DNA of 64,000 bases from Blastococcus capsensis (lineage in GTDB: Bacteria > Actinomycetota > Actinomycetes > Mycobacteriales > Geodermatophilaceae), in contig NZ_JASNNW010000001.1 in the NCBI RefSeq assembly GCF_030165005.1, forward strand, positions 434,001 to 498,000. The letters run 5' to 3'. The stretch's first letter is position 1. Every line of letters begins with the position of its first letter. Made by a program: the position numbers and the translations under genes. This document shows, in pieces, positions 24,631 to 61,178 of this stretch. The notes below the pieces were generated by a model. That model was not told the DNA's origin. It made no database searches and saw nothing but the letters and a program-made list of their open reading frames with translations.

Positions 24631-26091
24631 CCAGATCGGTGCGAAGAACGCGAAGGCGGCCACCGCCAGCACGGCCAGCGCGCCCCCGACGAAGCGGGGT
24701 CGCGGCCCCACCTGGACGGCTCGCACGAGGCCCAGGGCGAGAAACGGCACCGCCGGGACCAGGTAGAAGAAGTAGCCGGGCTTGCCGGCGGCCAGCCAGG
24801 GCAGCCAGAGCAGGGCGAGGGGGACGAGGATCGTGGCCGCGACCCCGTCCCGGCGGACGGCGGCCCGCCACAGCAGGACGGGGTAGGCGATCAGGGCGGG
24901 CCACCAGAGCGCGGGGCTCCCGACCAGCGTGATCCGTGCGACCGTTCCAGGCGGGATCTCGCACTCCCCCGCGTCCTGCTGCGCCGACGTGCAGCTCTCG
25001 GCGTAGACCAGCACCGGCCGCTCCAGCCACGCCCAGCCGGCGGGGTCGGAGCGGTAGGGGTGGGTCGCCTCGAGCTCCTGGTGGTAGCGGACGAGGTCGA
25101 CCTGGTTCTCCCACCACGTCTCCAGCCGGTCCCCGGGGCCGGCCGCGCAGTCGCCGGCCTCGCAGGCGCGTGACCCGGCGTAGCTGTCCGCGTAGTTGGC
25201 GAACCAGCCGGCGTGGGCGGCCGCGTAGACGGCGGCGGGGAGGGCGACGAGGCTCAGCGCGCCCCCGGCGGCGACGACGGCCGCCCGGCGCGTGCCCCGC
25301 CGCAGGCCCTCGCCGCGGGCGGCCAGCTCCGTGCCCAGCACCAGCAGGCCCGCGGCGGCGATGGCCAGCAGCCCCGACCACTTGGTCGCGACCGCCAGCC
25401 CCAGTGCCAGCCCCGCCAGCCACCGGTACCGGGAGCCCAGGAGGGACCGGCTCAGCGGCTCGTCGGGCCCGCGCGCGTGCCGCCGGGCGTCCCGGTCGAG
25501 CAGGACGAGCCAGAACGCGAGGACGACGAACAGCCCCAGCGTGGCGTCCAGCATGGCCATGCGGCTGGTCGTCACCGCCAGCCCGTCCAGCGCCACCAGG
25601 AGCGCCGCGAGGGCGGCCGGCGCGGTGCGCCGGAACAGCCGCAGGCCGCACAGGTGGACCAGCAGGACGGTCAGCGACCCGGCCACGGCGACGCCGATCC
25701 GCCAGCCGAACGGCGTGTAGCCGAAGACCTGGATGCCGAGGGCGATGACCCACTTGCCCAGAGGCGGGTGGGCCGGTCGCTCCTCCTCCACGCCGCGCGT
25801 GACGTAGTCCAGCCCGTCGCGGGCGTAGTACTTCTCGTCGAAGAACAGCCGGTCGGGGTCGCCGAGATCCCACAGCCGCACGGCCGCGGCCACGCCCAGC
25901 AGGAGCAGCGGTACCACCTGAGCCGATCGCGGGCGGCGCCAGGAGGCGCCGCCCGCGATCCGCTGCACCGCCGGCGCGGCGGCCGTGCTCCCCCCCGCCG
26001 TCTCCGGGCCCCACCCCCCCCCCCGGGGGGCGCCCCCCGCGGCCCCCCCCCCCCCCCTCCGCTGCTCCGCCGTCGCGGCGGCCGTGCTCAC
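24568..26091 (-). CDS. Dolichyl-phosphate-mannose-type protein O-mannosyltransferase
   Basis: This polytopic GT39/PMT enzyme mannosylates secreted proteins. The catalytic loop is clear: LFFDEKYYARDGLDYVTRG (Asp-Glu pair) and EERPAHPPLGKWVIALG. Then come SRMAMLDATLGLFVVLAFWL, VATKWSGLLAIA and the C-terminal AAGKPGYFFYLVPAVPF. The first 40 residues include a Gly/Ala-rich segment (about 11-37) encoded by a suspect C/G homopolymer insertion. Without it the protein would start MSTAAAPAVQRIAGG and be a normal-length PMT. It overlaps the upstream GT87 gene tail to tail. Confidence 0.9.
   Translation of the reverse strand: MSTAAATAEQRRGGGGAAGGAPRGGGWGPETAGGSTAAAPAVQRIAGGASWRRPRSAQVVPLLLLGVAAAVRLWDLGDPDRLFFDEKYYARDGLDYVTRGVEEERPAHPPLGKWVIALGIQVFGYTPFGWRIGVAVAGSLTVLLVHLCGLRLFRRTAPAALAALLVALDGLAVTTSRMAMLDATLGLFVVLAFWLVLLDRDARRHARGPDEPLSRSLLGSRYRWLAGLALGLAVATKWSGLLAIAAAGLLVLGTELAARGEGLRRGTRRAAVVAAGGALSLVALPAAVYAAAHAGWFANYADSYAGSRACEAGDCAAGPGDRLETWWENQVDLVRYHQELEATHPYRSDPAGWAWLERPVLVYAESCTSAQQDAGECEIPPGTVARITLVGSPALWWPALIAYPVLLWRAAVRRDGVAATILVPLALLWLPWLAAGKPGYFFYLVPAVPFLALGLVRAVQVGPRPRFVGGALAVLAVAAFAFFAPIWLGIPLDRDSLDLRYWLPSWR
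25976..26089. repeat. C/G homopolymer insert flanked by a 15-base direct repeat
   Basis: GCGGCGGCCGTGCTC occurs at 25976-25990 and again at 26075-26089. Between them lie long runs of C with a few G. The repeat period is 99 bases, so removing one period keeps the mannosyltransferase frame intact. The base composition is unlike any neighbouring sequence and looks like a mis-assembled or low-quality patch. Confidence 0.75.
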
Positions 26092-26095
26092 CGAG

Positions 26096-26365
26096 TCAGT
26101 TGTTCGTCTCGGTCTCGGTGTCGAACTCGGTCTCGGTCTCGGTGTCGACCTCGGTCTCGGTCTCGACGACCTCCTCCTCGGTCTCGGTCTCGGTCTCGGT
26201 CGGCTCGAGGGTCTCGGTGACCTCGGTGTCGAGCTCCTCGGTCTCGGTGATCTCCTCGGTCTCGGTGACCTCGACCGTGCCCTCCTCCTCCCCGCAGGCC
26301 GCGAGGCCGAGGGCGAGGAAGCCGGAGAAGGAGGCTGCGGCGATGCCGCGGGTGAGCTTGTTCAT
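26096..26365 (-). CDS. Glu/Thr-repeat lipoprotein
   Basis: An 89-aa protein with a type II signal peptide: MNKLTRGIAAASFSGFLALGLAAC, lipobox LAAC with Cys24. The mature part is almost entirely Glu, Thr, Val and Asp in TETE-like repeats (EVTETEEITETEEL, TETETETEEEVVETETEV). It should be a very acidic, disordered, surface-anchored tail. The opposite strand is also open (Val/Ser repeat) but has no signal or start context. Thr-rich tails are possible O-mannosylation targets, and a protein O-mannosyltransferase gene lies next door. That link is inference. Confidence 0.75.
   Translation of the reverse strand: MNKLTRGIAAASFSGFLALGLAACGEEEGTVEVTETEEITETEELDTEVTETLEPTETETETEEEVVETETEVDTETETEFDTETETNN
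26100..26275. repeat. Hexanucleotide-based minisatellite
   Basis: Irregular tandem copies of CTCGGT, mixed with CTCCTCGGT and CTCGACC variants, fill this stretch and encode the Glu/Thr repeats of the lipoprotein on the minus strand. Because the unit is six bases, copy-number changes would keep the frame and only alter tail length. Confidence 0.8.
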
Positions 26366-32732: not shown

Positions 32733-32769
32733 TCTCGCGGGCGGATCGATCCCCGGCCAGACGGTTCGG

Positions 32770-32875
32770 CTCCCGGGCCTGTCAGCCTCCGGGCACTCGG
32801 GTCGGCTTCCGCGGCCCGGTCCGCTCCTCGCTCGCTGGCGCTCGCTGCGATGCTCCCGGGCCTGTCAGCCTCCGG
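32770..32875. repeat. 23-base direct repeat from the moaD 3' end
   Basis: CTCCCGGGCCTGTCAGCCTC, continuing CGG, occurs at 32770-32792 and at 32853-32875. The second copy contains the moaD stop codon and its last codons, so the first is a partial duplicate of the gene's 3' end. Between the copies lies CTCCTCGCTCGCTGGCGCTC (32824-32843), the inverse near copy of the repeat found before modC. Confidence 0.65.
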
Positions 32876-36467: not shown

Positions 36468-36606
36468 GCTGACGCCCCCGGCGTCGGCCGCATGGCGATC
36501 CTCTTACGGACTCCTTACGGCGGGCGCCGGATCGTTTCCCGGCGCCCCTGCCGGACACCTCATGCAGGGTCCGGCGCAACGCCGAAGCCTGCAGAGGAGA
36601 ACGACG

Positions 36607-37146
36607 ATGATCGACGCCGCCAGCATCGCGGAACTGGGCCATCGCGACGTCTACGACGCCACCGGCAGCCGGATCGGCGAGACCTCCGAGGTCTACCTGG
36701 ACGACCAGACCGGCCTGCCCGAATGGGTGACGATAAAGACCGGTCTCTTCGGCACCAAGGAGACCTTCGTCCCGCTGCGGGACGCCGAGCTCACCACCGA
36801 CGGGCTGCGGGTCCCGGTCGCCAAAGACGTCGTGAAGGACGCCCCGAAGATCGATCCGGACGGCCGGCTCTCGCCGGCCGAGGAGCGGGAGCTCTACCGG
36901 TACTACGGGTTGGAGCGGGACGACGAGGTCGAGGTGTCGGCCCCCCGCACGGTCACCGAGCCCGCGCACCCGGTCGACGCCGTGCGGCTGGACGTGACCG
37001 ACGACGTGGTGGTCAGGCGCGACGACGAGGTGGTCAGCCGCGACGACGACCAGGTGGCAGGTCCGCTGGACCCGCCGGAGGCTCAGCGCAACGTGGCTGC
37101 GCCGCAGACCGAGAAACCGCTGCTGCGCCGCTACGGCGAGCGCTGA
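36607..37146 (+). CDS. PRC-barrel domain protein
   Basis: A 179-aa protein with an N-terminal PRC-barrel (VYDATGSRIGETSEVYLDDQTG, then TGLFGTKETFVPL) and the KDAPKIDPDGRLSPAEERELYRYYGL segment. A charged Asp/Val/Arg-rich tail follows. It is a clear paralogue of the gene at 39516, which also has a DUF2382 domain; here that domain is replaced by a short tail ending LLRRYGER. AGGAG precedes the ATG. Proteins of this kind are usually stress-induced; no sequence evidence of regulation is clear. Confidence 0.88.
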   Translation: MIDAASIAELGHRDVYDATGSRIGETSEVYLDDQTGLPEWVTIKTGLFGTKETFVPLRDAELTTDGLRVPVAKDVVKDAPKIDPDGRLSPAEERELYRYYGLERDDEVEVSAPRTVTEPAHPVDAVRLDVTDDVVVRRDDEVVSRDDDQVAGPLDPPEAQRNVAAPQTEKPLLRRYGER

Positions 37147-39165: not shown

Positions 39166-39515
39166 GCCTCCATGCTGAGCACGACGCACCCGCTGTTCCA
39201 GGACGACGCGCCGGGCCGCGCCCGGCGGCGGGCCGGCACGGGAGGCGCCGACACGCCCGGCCAGGGCGAAAATCCGCAGTGTGACGATCGGTACCGCCGC
39301 CGATCCTCTCGGCCGATGACCCGGTCGCTCGCCATCTACGCCGCCCTGACCTGCGGCTACACCGACCGCCCGGCGGCGAGGCGGGTCTGCGGGCGGTGGT
39401 CGGGCTCCGTTGCACCGACGTGACGATCGACGGCGTGTCGTTTGTCGTCGCCCATTGCGGTCACCCATCTCCGTGACGAACGCAACCCCGAGCGCAGATA
39501 GGAGCGACAACGACC
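39166..39515. other. 350-base gap with one doubtful short frame
   Basis: The gap lies between the divergent DUF3097 gene and the second PRC-barrel gene. A plus-strand frame of 35 codons (39316-39423, MTRSLAIYAALTCG...) starts well but has no ribosome-binding site and no family, so it is not called as a gene. The last part must contain the promoter of the PRC-barrel gene, whose AGGAG site is near 39502. Confidence 0.35.
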
Positions 39516-40337
39516 ATGATCGGCACCGAGACCATCAGCCGCGTGATCGGCCAGGACGTCTACGACACCGAGGGCCAGAAGATCGGGTCGGCCTCCGAGG
39601 TCTACCTGGACGACGAGACCGGCCAGCCCGAGTGGGTGACGGTTCGCACCGGCCTGTTCGGCACCAAGGAGTCCTTCGTCCCGATCCGGGACGCGGACCT
39701 GACCAACGACGGCGTCCGCGTCGCCGTGACCAAGGACCGGGTCAAGGACGCCCCGAAGATCGACACCGACGGTCACCTGTCCCCGGCGGAGGAGCAGGAG
39801 CTCTACCGCTACTACGGCCTGGGCACCGGCATGGCGACCGAGACGACCGCGGGCAGGACCGAGACCACCGACGCCGCCCGCATGACCGAGACCACCGACA
39901 CCGCGCGCATGACCGAGACCACCGGCACCGTCGGCCACGACACCTCCGGCCCGACCACCGACAACGCCATGACCCGCTCCGAGGAGCGGCTCAACGTCGG
40001 CACCCGGTCCGAGGAGACCGGCCGCGCCCGGCTGCGCAAGTACGTCGTGAGCGAGAACGTCACCGAGACCGTGCCCGTGACGCGGGAAGAGGTGCGTGTC
40101 GAGCGCGAGCCGATCACCGACGCCAACGTCGGCAACGCCCTCGACGGCCCGGCGATCAGCGAGGAGGAGCACGAGGTCACCCTCCACGCCGAGCGCCCCG
40201 TGGTGGAGAAGGAGGCCGTGCCGGTCGAGCGCGTCCGCCTCGACAAGACCACGGTCACCGACCAGGAGCAGGTCTCGGCCGATGTGCGCAAGGAAGAGAT
40301 CGAGACCGAGGGCGGCGACGACACCCGTCGCATGTGA
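39516..40337 (+). CDS. PRC-barrel and DUF2382 (YsnF-type) stress protein
   Basis: A 273-aa protein. The PRC-barrel domain (about 10-90: VYDTEGQKIGSASEVYLDDETG, TGLFGTKESFVP) is followed by a Thr-rich linker with tandem repeats (MTETTDTAR-like, about 115-140). The DUF2382 domain comes next (EERLNVGTRSEETGRARLRKYV, TETVPVTREEVRVEREPI, EEEHEVTLHAERPVVEKEAVPVERVRL). Such proteins are general-stress or envelope-associated and widespread in dry-soil actinobacteria; the exact role is unknown. It is a paralogue of the shorter gene at 36607. A long perfect hairpin follows the stop. Confidence 0.9.
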   Translation: MIGTETISRVIGQDVYDTEGQKIGSASEVYLDDETGQPEWVTVRTGLFGTKESFVPIRDADLTNDGVRVAVTKDRVKDAPKIDTDGHLSPAEEQELYRYYGLGTGMATETTAGRTETTDAARMTETTDTARMTETTGTVGHDTSGPTTDNAMTRSEERLNVGTRSEETGRARLRKYVVSENVTETVPVTREEVRVEREPITDANVGNALDGPAISEEEHEVTLHAERPVVEKEAVPVERVRLDKTTVTDQEQVSADVRKEEIETEGGDDTRRM

Positions 40338-40366
40338 TCGCCCCCGGCTCCGGCCGGAACTGACGA

Positions 40367-40404
40367 CGGCGGCCGCCCGAGGAGTACTCCTCGGGCGGCC
40401 GCCG
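40367..40404 (+). terminator. Perfect 19-base-arm hairpin
   Basis: A perfect inverted repeat with 19-base arms meets at 40385/40386 (centre GAGGAGTACTCCTC), 29 bases after the PRC-DUF2382 stop. It is the strongest hairpin in the window. A converging gene ends at 40529, so it may serve both directions. Such a stem also explains why the following bases sequenced or assembled badly. Confidence 0.85.
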
Positions 40405-40519
40405 CCGTCGTCCCCGGGGGGGGTGACACGCCCAGGCCGGCCCCGGGCCCGCCCCCCCCCCCCGCCCCGCCGCCCCCCCGGGGGGGGCGCCCCCCCCCCC
40501 CCCCCGCCGCCGTCGTCCC
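40401..40519. repeat. C/G homopolymer insert flanked by a 14-base direct repeat
   Basis: GCCGCCGTCGTCCC occurs at 40401-40414 and 40506-40519, 105 bases apart. Between them are runs of C and G up to 17 bases long. The arrangement is the same as at 25976-26089 and lies immediately after a very strong hairpin, pointing to an assembly artefact. Confidence 0.75.
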
Positions 40520-40528
40520 GGGGGTGGT

Positions 40529-41824
40529 TCAGTCGCCGAGGCAGGCCGCGAGCGCACCCACCATGAGCGGGACGTCGAGCGCGGAGGCGAGCTCCCGGCA
40601 GGAGTGCATGGCCAGCATGGGCGCCCCGATGTCGACCGTCGCGATCCCCAGCCGGGTCGCCGTCAGCGGGCCGATGGTGCTGCCGCACGGGAGATCGGCT
40701 CGGGTGACGAACGACTGCACCGGGACCGACGCCTCCGCGCACCGCTCGGTGAACCAGCCACCGGTGGCGGCGTCGGTCGCGTAGGCCTGGTTGGCGTTGA
40801 GCTTGAGCACGGGCCCGCCCCCGAGCTGGGGCTGGTGGGCCGGCTCGTGCCGGTCGGCGCGGGTCGGGTGCACGGCGTGCGCCATGTCGGCCGAGACGAG
40901 CACGGAGCGGGCGAGGGCCCGGTGCGCCGCCTGCGGGTCGGCCGGGTCGGTGGCCGCGGCCAGCCGCCGGACGACGTCCTCGAGGAAGCTGCCGCGCGCA
41001 CCGGCCATCGAGCCGCTGCCCACCTCCTCGTGGTCGTTGCAGACCAGCACCTGGGTCCGCTCGCCGGCGGGCGCCGCCAGCAGGGCGAGCAGCCCGGAGT
41101 GGCAGCAGGCCAGGTCGTCCAGCCGGGGCGCGGCCACCCAGGTGCCGTCGGCGCCGGTGCGCGCGGCCGGCTGGGTGTCGGCCAGCACCAGGTCGTGACC
41201 GACGACGTCGTCGGTGGCGACGTCGGCCGTGTCGGCCAGCGCGGCCATCAGCCCCGGCTCCTCGGCCAGGTCGTGTGACCAGACCGGCACCAGGTGCCGC
41301 TGCGGGTCCAGGGTCAGGCCCTCCCGCACCGAGCGGTCGAGGTGGATCGCCAGCGAGGGCAGCCGCAGCGGGGCGCCGGGCAGCCGCACGAGGGCGGTCG
41401 CGCCACCACGCAGCACCAGCCGCCCGGCCACGGTCAGCTCGCGGTCCAGCCAGGTGTGCCACAGGCCGCCGCCGTAGGGCTCGACGCCGACGAGGCGGTA
41501 CCCCGCCTGCCGGACGTCGGAGCGCGGCCGCACCTTGAACGTGGGGGAGTCGGTGTGCGCGCCCACCAGCCGCATCCCGGCCTCGGCCAGCGGGGCGCTG
41601 CCCATCCGGAAGGCGACCAGGCTGCCGTGCCGGACCACGAAGTGCCGCCCACCGGGGGACGGCGCCCAGGCGTCGCCCTCGGCCAGCTCGGTGAATCCGG
41701 CCGCGGTGAGCCGCCGGACCAGCTCGGCGACCGCGTGCGCGGGGGACGGGGAGGCGTCGACGAACGCCCGCAGGTCGTCGCCGAGGGCGAGCTCGTCGGT
41801 CGGGGCGGCATCCGGCTTCGGCAT
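40529..41824 (-). CDS. M18 family aminopeptidase
   Basis: A 431-aa di-zinc aminopeptidase (ApeB/aspartyl aminopeptidase family) that trims N-terminal residues of peptides in the cytoplasm. Metal and catalytic motifs are LVGAHTDSPTFKVRP (first His), RLDDLACCHSGLLAL (bridging Asp), VCNDHEEVGSGSMAGA (catalytic Glu pair), VSADMAHAVHP and, near the end, AMHSCRELAS (last His). Length and start (MPKPDAAP) are normal. It converges with the upstream PRC-DUF2382 gene. Confidence 0.92.
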   Translation of the reverse strand: MPKPDAAPTDELALGDDLRAFVDASPSPAHAVAELVRRLTAAGFTELAEGDAWAPSPGGRHFVVRHGSLVAFRMGSAPLAEAGMRLVGAHTDSPTFKVRPRSDVRQAGYRLVGVEPYGGGLWHTWLDRELTVAGRLVLRGGATALVRLPGAPLRLPSLAIHLDRSVREGLTLDPQRHLVPVWSHDLAEEPGLMAALADTADVATDDVVGHDLVLADTQPAARTGADGTWVAAPRLDDLACCHSGLLALLAAPAGERTQVLVCNDHEEVGSGSMAGARGSFLEDVVRRLAAATDPADPQAAHRALARSVLVSADMAHAVHPTRADRHEPAHQPQLGGGPVLKLNANQAYATDAATGGWFTERCAEASVPVQSFVTRADLPCGSTIGPLTATRLGIATVDIGAPMLAMHSCRELASALDVPLMVGALAACLGD

Positions 41825-41900
41825 GCGGCCATCGTGCCCGACGCGTCCGGCGGCGCGGGGGCGGGCGCGGGGGGAAGCCTGCAGGTGGGATGCTCGCGGT

Positions 41901-42788
41901 GTGAGCGAGCCCACGGTCCCCGGCAGCCCTGGCGAGCTGGCCGCCGCGCTCGACGCGACCGGGTACCTGCCCGACGAGGGCCTGGCCACCGCCGCCTACC
42001 TGGCCCTGGTCATGCACCGACCGCTGTTCCTGGAGGGCGAGGCCGGCGTCGGGAAGACGGCGCTGGCCCAGGCGCTGGCGCAGCTCACCGGCCGGCCGAT
42101 CTACCGGCTGCAGTGCTACGAGGGGCTGGAGGCCAGCCAGGCGCTCTACGACTGGGACTTCGGCCGCCAGCTGCTGCACCTGCGCGCCGCGGAGGCCGCG
42201 CACGCCGCCGACGACCCCGCGCGGCTGGAGGCCTCCCTCTACGACCGCCGGTTCCTGCTGGCCCGGCCGCTGCTGCAGGCGCTGGAGGATTCCCCGAGCG
42301 TGCTGCTGATCGACGAGGTCGACCGCGCCGACGACGAGTTCGAGGCGTTCCTGCTGGAGGTGCTGAGCGACTTCACCATCTCCATCCCCGAGCTCGGCAC
42401 GGTGCGGGCCCGGACGCCGCCGCTGGTGGTGCTCACCTCCAACCGCACCCGCGAGGTGCACGACGCGCTCAAGCGCCGCTGCCTCTACCACTGGCTGGCC
42501 CACCCGGACTTCGACCGCGAGGTGGCGATCCTGCGCCGCCGGCTGCCCGAGGTCACCGAGCAGCTCGCGCACCAGGTGGCCCGGGCGACCGCGACGCTGC
42601 GCACCCTCGACCTGCTCAAGCCGCCCGGGGTCGCCGAATCCATGGACTGGGCGACGGCGCTGCACACCCTGGGCGCCCGCGAGCTCGACCCGGACCTCGC
42701 GGCGCGCACGCTGGGCGCGGTGCTCAAGTACCGGGAGGACACCGAGCGGGTGCGCTCGCTGCGACCGGAGGCGCTTTTCGGTGGCTGA
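41901..42788 (+). CDS. MoxR-type AAA ATPase (CoxD-like)
   Basis: A 295-aa AAA+ ATPase: Walker A FLEGEAGVGKTALAQAL, Walker B VLLIDEVDRADDEFEAFLLEVLSD, sensor VLTSNRTREVHDALKRRCLYHWLAHPDF. The sequence matches CoxD, which works with a vWA protein to mature the Mo/Cu centre of CO dehydrogenase-type enzymes. The start is the GTG just before SEPTVPG. Its last eight bases overlap the vWA gene, which is translationally coupled. The structural Mo-hydroxylase genes are not in the window. Confidence 0.88.
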   Translation: MSEPTVPGSPGELAAALDATGYLPDEGLATAAYLALVMHRPLFLEGEAGVGKTALAQALAQLTGRPIYRLQCYEGLEASQALYDWDFGRQLLHLRAAEAAHAADDPARLEASLYDRRFLLARPLLQALEDSPSVLLIDEVDRADDEFEAFLLEVLSDFTISIPELGTVRARTPPLVVLTSNRTREVHDALKRRCLYHWLAHPDFDREVAILRRRLPEVTEQLAHQVARATATLRTLDLLKPPGVAESMDWATALHTLGARELDPDLAARTLGAVLKYREDTERVRSLRPEALFGG

Positions 42789-59772: not shown

Positions 59773-61178
59773 TCCCGGCGGCGCCGGCCGGCCGGCTGCC
59801 CGACGGGTTCGCCGTCCGGCTGGACCCGCGCGTCCGTCGCCGCGACGCCGGCGCGACCCTGCTCGGGGGCTCACCGCTGCGGCTGCTGCGGCTTGCGCCG
59901 CGCGCGGCCGGCCTGTTGCGCGGGGAGCGGCTCGTGGCCCGCGACGCGACGAGCGCTGCGCTGGCCGGCCGGCTGCTGGACGCGGGGCTCGCGCACCCTG
60001 ATCTGCCGCCGGACCCGCGCACGGGCGACGTCACCGTCGTCGTCCCGGTCAAGGACCGCCCGGACGGGCTGGCCCGGCTGCTGGCGGCGCTGCGGGCCGA
60101 TCCGGGAACGGCCGCGTTGCCGGTCGTCGTGGTCGACGACGGCTCGGCCGAGCCGGTGACCGCCCCCGACGGCGTCCGGGTGCTGCGGCACGCGACCGCG
60201 CGCGGGCCCGCCGCCGCGCGCAACGCCGGTCTCGCCGCGGCCGGCACCGGACTCGTCGCCTTCCTCGACTCCGACTGCGTGCCGCTCCCCGGCTGGCTCG
60301 CCCGGCTGCGCCCGCACCTGGCCGATCCCCGCCTCGCCGCCGTCGGCCCGCGGATCGTGCCGCTGGCCGGCGCCGCCCGCGGCTGGACCAGCCCGTACGA
60401 GGACGTCGCAGGCGCCCTGGACATGGGCACCGCCCCGGCGGCGGTCCGTCCCCTGTCCCGGCTGTCCTACCTGCCCAGCGCGGCGCTGCTGGTGCGTCGC
60501 TCCGCCCTGGGGGCGGGGTTCGACGAGGACATGCGGGTGGCGGAGGACGTCGACCTCGTCTGGCGGCTCGCCGGCGCGGGTTGGCGGGTGCGGTACGAGC
60601 CGGCCGCCGCGGTGGCGCACGAGCACCCGGCGCGCACGGCCCGGTGGCTGGGCCGGCGCGCGTTCTACGGCACCGGGGCCGCGCTGCTGGCCACCCGGCA
60701 CGGGGCTGCGGTCTCCCCGCTGGTCATCGCACCGGAGGCCGCCGCGGCGTGGGCGCTGCTCCTGGCGGGCGGCCGCCGGGGGCGGTGGGCCGCGTGCGGC
60801 GTCGTCGTGGTCATCACCGGCCGCCTGGCGCGCCGGCTGGCCAGGCCGGGGGAGCGGACCCCGGTCGGCCTCGCCGCGGCGCTGGCGGTGCGCGGGATGG
60901 CGGCGGCGGGCCGGGGGCTGGCCCGGTCGGCGACCCGGCACCACTGGCCGGTGGCGGTCGCGGCGGCGGTCGTCTCCCGGCGGGCCCGTTCCCGGCTGCT
61001 CGCCGTGGCCCTGGCCGACGGGCTGCTGGCCTGGTGGCCGCACCGGGCAGTGGTCGGACCGGTCCGTTCCGTCCTCGCGCGGCGGCTGGACGACCTGGCG
61101 TACGGGGTCGGGTTGTGGGCCGGTGCGCTGCGCGCCCGCGACCTGCGGGCACTCCTGCCGGTCCGCCCACCGCGCTGA
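59769..61178 (+). CDS. mftF: Mycofactocin glycosyltransferase MftF
   Basis: A 469-aa GT2 enzyme that adds beta-1,4-glucose units to premycofactocin. After an MftF-specific N-terminal domain (about 1-95) the GT2 domain starts at VTVVVPVKDRPDGLARLLAAL. The DSDCVPLPGWLARLRPHL nucleotide-sugar site and the VAEDVDLVWRLAGAGWRVRYEP (EDVDL) catalytic motif follow. The C-terminal region has hydrophobic segments (about 310-350, 380-420). The GTG start is inside the end of the hydrolase gene. It is the last mft gene of the locus; an mftG (GMC oxidoreductase) is not visible. Confidence 0.93.
   Translation: MIPAAPAGRLPDGFAVRLDPRVRRRDAGATLLGGSPLRLLRLAPRAAGLLRGERLVARDATSAALAGRLLDAGLAHPDLPPDPRTGDVTVVVPVKDRPDGLARLLAALRADPGTAALPVVVVDDGSAEPVTAPDGVRVLRHATARGPAAARNAGLAAAGTGLVAFLDSDCVPLPGWLARLRPHLADPRLAAVGPRIVPLAGAARGWTSPYEDVAGALDMGTAPAAVRPLSRLSYLPSAALLVRRSALGAGFDEDMRVAEDVDLVWRLAGAGWRVRYEPAAAVAHEHPARTARWLGRRAFYGTGAALLATRHGAAVSPLVIAPEAAAAWALLLAGGRRGRWAACGVVVVITGRLARRLARPGERTPVGLAAALAVRGMAAAGRGLARSATRHHWPVAVAAAVVSRRARSRLLAVALADGLLAWWPHRAVVGPVRSVLARRLDDLAYGVGLWAGALRARDLRALLPVRPPR

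What the first reader, a model, noticed from the sequence alone, without database searches (positions are those of the whole stretch)
40401..40519. Second homopolymer patch after a strong hairpin, same architecture
A 14-base direct repeat 105 bases apart again brackets C/G runs, right after the strongest hairpin of the window. Two patches of identical design imply a systematic assembly problem at strong secondary structure, so other indels in this contig should be suspected.
Basis: seen in the sequence. Interest (0 to 1): 0.45.

Follow-up and report, generated by a model that had tools for sequence, protein, structure and literature searches.

The report
Sequencing artefact at a terminator-like hairpin
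A 105-base C/G-rich patch in this actinobacterium's draft genome is almost certainly a false insertion made when sequencing reads failed at a very stable hairpin between two ordinary genes; it matters only as a warning about this assembly.

Summary
A 16-base direct repeat (40399 and 40504, spacing 105) brackets an almost pure C/G patch directly after a 24+24 nt hairpin (40362-40409) between convergent genes for a PRC/DUF2382 protein and an M18 aminopeptidase. In 15 of 17 congener loci the same genes are 58-117 nt apart, without the patch; the window has 194, and 194-105=89. Beyond the exact repeat, the left part of the patch copies the downstream sequence with errors, 30 of 43 identical; 0 of 63,558 control positions reach that. 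The assembly has 62 C/G runs of 11 or more, in 22 clusters; 22 congeners have 0-5 each. Seven of the 22 clusters lie within 100 nt of a contig end, 0.05 expected. At the 4 of 22 sites compared with relatives, these have a strong hairpin and no such patch. Outer runs are mostly G on the left and C on the right (28 of 37), as if reads from both sides lost signal and were called G. The real anatomy is an ordinary conserved hairpin. No raw reads were available.

The parts
39516..40337 (+). gene for a PRC-barrel + DUF2382 protein (273 aa), upstream neighbour
   Evidence: ORF; Pfam PF05239 E 5.9e-14 and PF09557 E 2.4e-32
40362..40409 (.). hairpin between the convergent genes, arms 40362-40385 / 40386-40409; conserved terminator-like element
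   Evidence: MFE -49.6 kcal/mol for 40362-40412; consensus fold of the window and 16 congener loci, 6 of 16 pairs with changes on both sides
40399..40414 (+). left copy of the 16-base direct repeat (end of the hairpin's 3' arm and next bases)
40415..40457 (+). left part of patch: error-laden second copy of 40520-40562
   Evidence: 30 of 43 identical ungapped; 0 of 63,558 plus-strand control positions reach 30, maximum 27
40458..40503 (+). right part of patch: C/G runs, ending in a C16 run (40490-40505) that reaches the right repeat copy
   Evidence: no detectable similarity to the hairpin beyond the exact repeat
40504..40519 (+). right copy of the 16-base direct repeat, where reliable sequence resumes
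40529..41824 (-). M18 aminopeptidase gene (431 aa from the start chosen here; the frame is open to 41989)
   Evidence: ORF; Pfam PF02127 E 2.1e-121
25975..26089 (+). first patch of the same design (16-base repeat, spacing 99), after hairpin 25921-25964
   Evidence: absent in the three relatives that matched on both sides

Best explanation
The patch is not genomic DNA but a false insertion of about 105 bases made in sequencing and assembly. Inferred steps: reads crossing or entering the very stable GC hairpin lose signal or phase. Forward reads continue as an increasingly wrong, C/G-biased version of the true downstream sequence. Reverse reads, on meeting the hairpin, collapse into G, which reads as C on the plus strand. 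The assembler then joins the two low-quality tails by their C/G runs, so the end of the hairpin arm appears twice. Shown: the corrupted copy, the absence from relatives, the genome-wide repetition and the clustering at contig ends. Inferred: the platform (probably Illumina two-colour, where no signal is called G) and the joining step. The real feature is an ordinary conserved hairpin between convergent genes, probably acting as a two-way transcription terminator or barrier (inferred from position).
For: 15 of 17 congener loci have the same two genes 58-117 nt apart without the patch. Left part 30/43 identical to downstream sequence, 0 of 63,558 control positions as good. 62 C/G runs of 11 or more here against 0-5 in each of 22 congeners, 29 in all. 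7 of 22 clusters within 100 nt of contig ends against 0.05 expected, P about 6e-14. Outer-run polarity 28 of 37 boundaries G-left or C-right, one-sided P 0.0013. Patch 1: in G008 and G017 the two query flanks, 63-64 nt apart in the window, match relative segments that overlap by 33 and 35 nt; in G012 they are 28 nt apart and overlap by 66 nt; 4 of the 7 genomes searched had no match on both sides. At patch 1 (G008, G017), C6:74.1 kb (G005) and C40:30.8 kb (G008) the relative's site is more stable than every one of 232-262 sampled 60-nt windows of its locus. Loss of signal giving poly-G on two-colour machines is described in PMC13218037 (one passage seen).
Against: No reads, qualities or depth were available. 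The right part of the patch shows no similarity to the hairpin beyond the exact repeat (score 9.0 against a control mean of 8.4; purine/pyrimidine 18.0 against 17.8). A gapped local score for the left part was equalled or beaten at 18 of 2,954 random places, because the C/G composition inflates matches. Mismatches of the left part go to C or G in 12 of 13 cases, but the largest class is G to C (5), which simple loss of signal does not explain. A flanking exact stem above the control 99th percentile (10.4) is present at only 4 of 22 clusters, two of them the window's own. Nine of 37 outer runs have the opposite polarity, including the left boundary of both window patches by the automatic rule (by eye the first run of patch 2 is G8 at 40416). 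Only 4 of 22 clusters were compared with relatives. G002 has two similar patches, so the fault is not unique to this assembly.
Confidence: 0.95

Rival explanations
1. Real DNA: this strain truly carries expanded, variable C/G tracts at terminator hairpins, made by replication slippage.
For: The tracts sit at strong hairpins, which could stall polymerases in vivo (inference); congener G002 has two similar G-run/C-run patches, one directly after the stop of a gene similar to the one before patch C40:30.8 kb.
Against: 7 of 22 clusters lie at contig ends; 22 congeners, including single-contig G008 (96% identical in the M18 protein), have 0-5 runs each; the left part is a scattered-error copy of downstream sequence, not a simple tract; one of the two G002 patches also lies 70 nt from a contig end.
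Confidence: 0.03
2. A true tandem duplication of about 105 bp of which one copy later decayed toward C/G.
For: Exact 16-base repeat with 78% identity over 59 nt at spacing 105.
Against: Differences are nearly all toward C/G in the patch copy (12 of 13), and the match fades beyond about 40457 (by eye); the same design recurs with unrelated sequence at 25975-26089; no duplication is seen in the 15 congener loci with the same arrangement.
Confidence: 0.02

Closest known systems
Illumina two-colour poly-G artefact (PMC13218037, one passage seen)
   Same: [quoted passage not shown] the outer runs here are mostly G on the left and C on the right, as expected if reads from both sides did this.
   Different: There it is a read-level artefact; here it appears to have been assembled into the consensus. 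The platform of this genome is not known.
Illumina sequence-specific errors and coverage drops at GGC-type motifs (PMC4872057, passages seen)
   Same: GC motifs such as GGCNG are tied to drops of coverage and unaligned read ends; the hairpin arms here contain such GGC motifs.
   Different: The passages report coverage loss, not false C/G patches in an assembly, and predicted secondary structure did not explain that paper's GFP dip.
Hairpin between convergent genes (terminator-like)
   Same: Conserved GC stem between the same convergent genes in the genus, with paired changes on both sides.
   Different: No T-run follows the stem, so it is not a textbook intrinsic terminator.

Membership tests
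assembly artefact at secondary structure | absent from orthologous loci of close relatives | tested here: met
   15 of 17 congener loci with the same arrangement lack it. L023 has 492 nt between the genes, without C/G runs of 6 or more; for L032 the rule examined only 13 nt and says nothing
assembly artefact at secondary structure | recurs at unrelated sites of the same assembly and at contig ends | tested here: met
   22 clusters, 7 within 100 nt of contig ends
assembly artefact at secondary structure | strong hairpin at the site | tested here: met
   4 of 4 sites compared with relatives, of 22 in all. By exact flanking stem alone only 4 of 22 clusters exceed the control's 99th percentile; at two others the patch lies where the relative has the stem
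assembly artefact at secondary structure | low quality, low depth or conflicting reads | not testable with these tools
   no reads available
two-colour poly-G artefact | G runs in the direction of reading from both sides | tested here: inconclusive
   28 of 37 boundaries agree, P 0.0013 one-sided; the left boundaries of the window's two patches do not by the automatic rule
two-colour poly-G artefact | genome sequenced on a two-colour instrument | not testable with these tools
   genome unnamed, no run metadata
intrinsic (Rho-independent) terminator | GC-rich stem-loop conserved after the stop codons | tested here: met
intrinsic (Rho-independent) terminator | run of T after the stem | tested here: not met
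   0 terminator-like sites found in 40200-40700

The most novel reading that the evidence does not exclude
The C/G patches are real, strain-specific expansions at terminator hairpins, a hypervariable tract system.
Probability: 0.03. Interest if true: 0.5.

Novelty: not a real feature. Interest (0 to 1): 0.07.

Why it matters
It suggests that this draft assembly contains about 20 false C/G patches (22 clusters, 4 of them checked against relatives). Homopolymer, repeat, intergenic-length or frameshift analyses of it should mask them. Searching for C/G runs of 11 or more and asking whether they sit at contig ends is a quick screen for the same fault in other GC-rich genomes.

Tried and rejected
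Right part of the patch as a corrupted copy of the hairpin read from the right: attractive, but not supported beyond the exact repeat. Purine/pyrimidine-only errors: not supported. Exact flanking stems at all clusters: only 4 of 22 above the control's 99th percentile, so I relied on relatives for two more sites. Rfam family at 40200-40700: none. Intrinsic terminator with T-run: none. Plasmid collection at DNA level, 39500-42000: no match. A third window stretch given to Pfam (36600-37143) had no match. The query at C6:74.1 kb matched over its whole length in 1 of 7 relatives; the other hits were short. The query at C40:30.8 kb matched over its whole length in 1 of 7, G008; the other six gave partial matches. 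Literature: searches were searched; I saw listings, and passages of two papers. One search, aimed at this fault in GC-rich actinobacteria, listed 3 papers, none of them opened; that does not show that none exists. The ORF lists around C14:188.5 kb and patch 1 were not taken further.

Full report
Observation. A 24+24 nt inverted repeat (40362-40409) is followed by a C/G-dominated stretch bracketed by a 16-base direct repeat at 40399 and 40504. The stretch 40413-40503 has 4 A/T in 91 bases. The hairpin's 60-nt fold (-50.7 kcal/mol) is second in the window to one at 60741 (-51.3). The other patch of the same design is at 25975-26089.

Setting. The hairpin lies between two convergent genes, a PRC/DUF2382 protein (39516-40337, +) and an M18 aminopeptidase (stop at 40529, -). 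The window lies in a 51-contig assembly of 4,392,919 bases. The closest named records found with the M18 protein are mostly Blastococcus, Modestobacter and Geodermatophilus. The genus is therefore probably Blastococcus (inference).

Relatives. The M18 search returned loci from 17 congeners besides the window's own genome. In 15 of 17 the DUF2382 gene lies in convergent orientation 58-117 nt away, counted in the same way as the window's 194. L023 has 492 nt, with further sequence between the genes; for L032 the automatic rule gave 13 nt, and I do not count it. In the 16 stretches other than L032 the longest C/G run was 7. 194 minus 105 is 89, inside the range. The window and 16 congener loci (L032 left out) align to a common stem of 16 pairs, 6 of which change on both sides in some sequence while staying paired; the covariation term is small, -1.03.

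Origin of the letters. At spacing 105 the left part of the patch follows the downstream sequence: 30 of 43 bases beyond the exact repeat, with a maximum of 27 among 63,558 other plus-strand positions. Twelve of 13 mismatches go to C or G. With gaps allowed the contrast is weaker: 18 of 2,954 random places were as good. The right part is mostly runs and shows no similarity to the hairpin beyond the exact repeat.

Genome-wide. The pattern for runs of 11 or more gave 62 in this assembly and 29 in all in 22 congeners, 0-5 each. By position I group the 62 into 22 clusters; all 22 were fetched and printed. Seven of the 22 lie within 100 nt of a contig end; 0.05 would be expected, P about 6e-14. By an automatic rule the first run on the left is G in 15 of 21 and the last on the right is C in 13 of 16, together 28 of 37, one-sided P 0.0013. 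Besides the two in the window, one more cluster is on the same contig, at C14:188.5 kb.

Other sites against relatives. For patch 1, 3 of 7 genomes searched matched on both sides. In G008 and G017 the matched segments overlap by 33 and 35 nt while the query has 63-64 nt between them; in G012 they overlap by 66 nt with 28 nt between. The stem itself is conserved in the two aligned (G008, G017). At C6:74.1 kb, G005 has a strong hairpin where this assembly has G and C runs; at C40:30.8 kb, G008 likewise. At these three sites the relative's site is more stable than all 232-262 sampled 60-nt windows of its locus. With patch 2 that is 4 of 4 sites compared, of 22, where relatives carry a strong hairpin and no such patch.

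Conclusion. The evidence points to reads failing at very stable hairpins and their tails being built into the consensus or ending contigs. PMC13218037 describes persistent signal loss read as poly-G on two-colour machines (one passage seen), and PMC4872057 coverage loss and unaligned read ends at GGC-type motifs (passages seen). That this genome came from a two-colour machine is inferred, and the polarity test supports it only moderately. The hairpin itself is ordinary; it lacks a T-run, so I call it terminator-like.

Noticed in passing
window 32769-32875: A 24-nt direct repeat with spacing 83 (32769 and 32852), without long C/G runs between the copies.
   Followed up: no
window 26106-26275: Tandem CTCGGT-type repeats next to patch 1, on the minus strand probably a low-complexity Glu/Thr-rich protein end.
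   Followed up: no
window 39857-39925: 27-nt tandem repeats inside the DUF2382 gene.
   Followed up: no
window 60741-60800: The most stable 60-nt fold of the window (-51.3 kcal/mol), without a C/G patch; so a strong fold does not always give a patch.
   Followed up: partly
L094 (G002 C3:529001-529036) and L095 (G002 C6:352980-353022): A congener's assembly shows two similar G-run/C-run patches, the second 70 nt from a contig end.
   Followed up: partly
L097 (G008 C1:3860890-3860914): A run of 25 C in a single-contig congener genome; real or artefact unknown.
   Followed up: no
L050 (G000 C14:188511-188677): A 167-base patch on the window's own contig that overlaps long open frames and may break a gene in the assembly.
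   Followed up: partly
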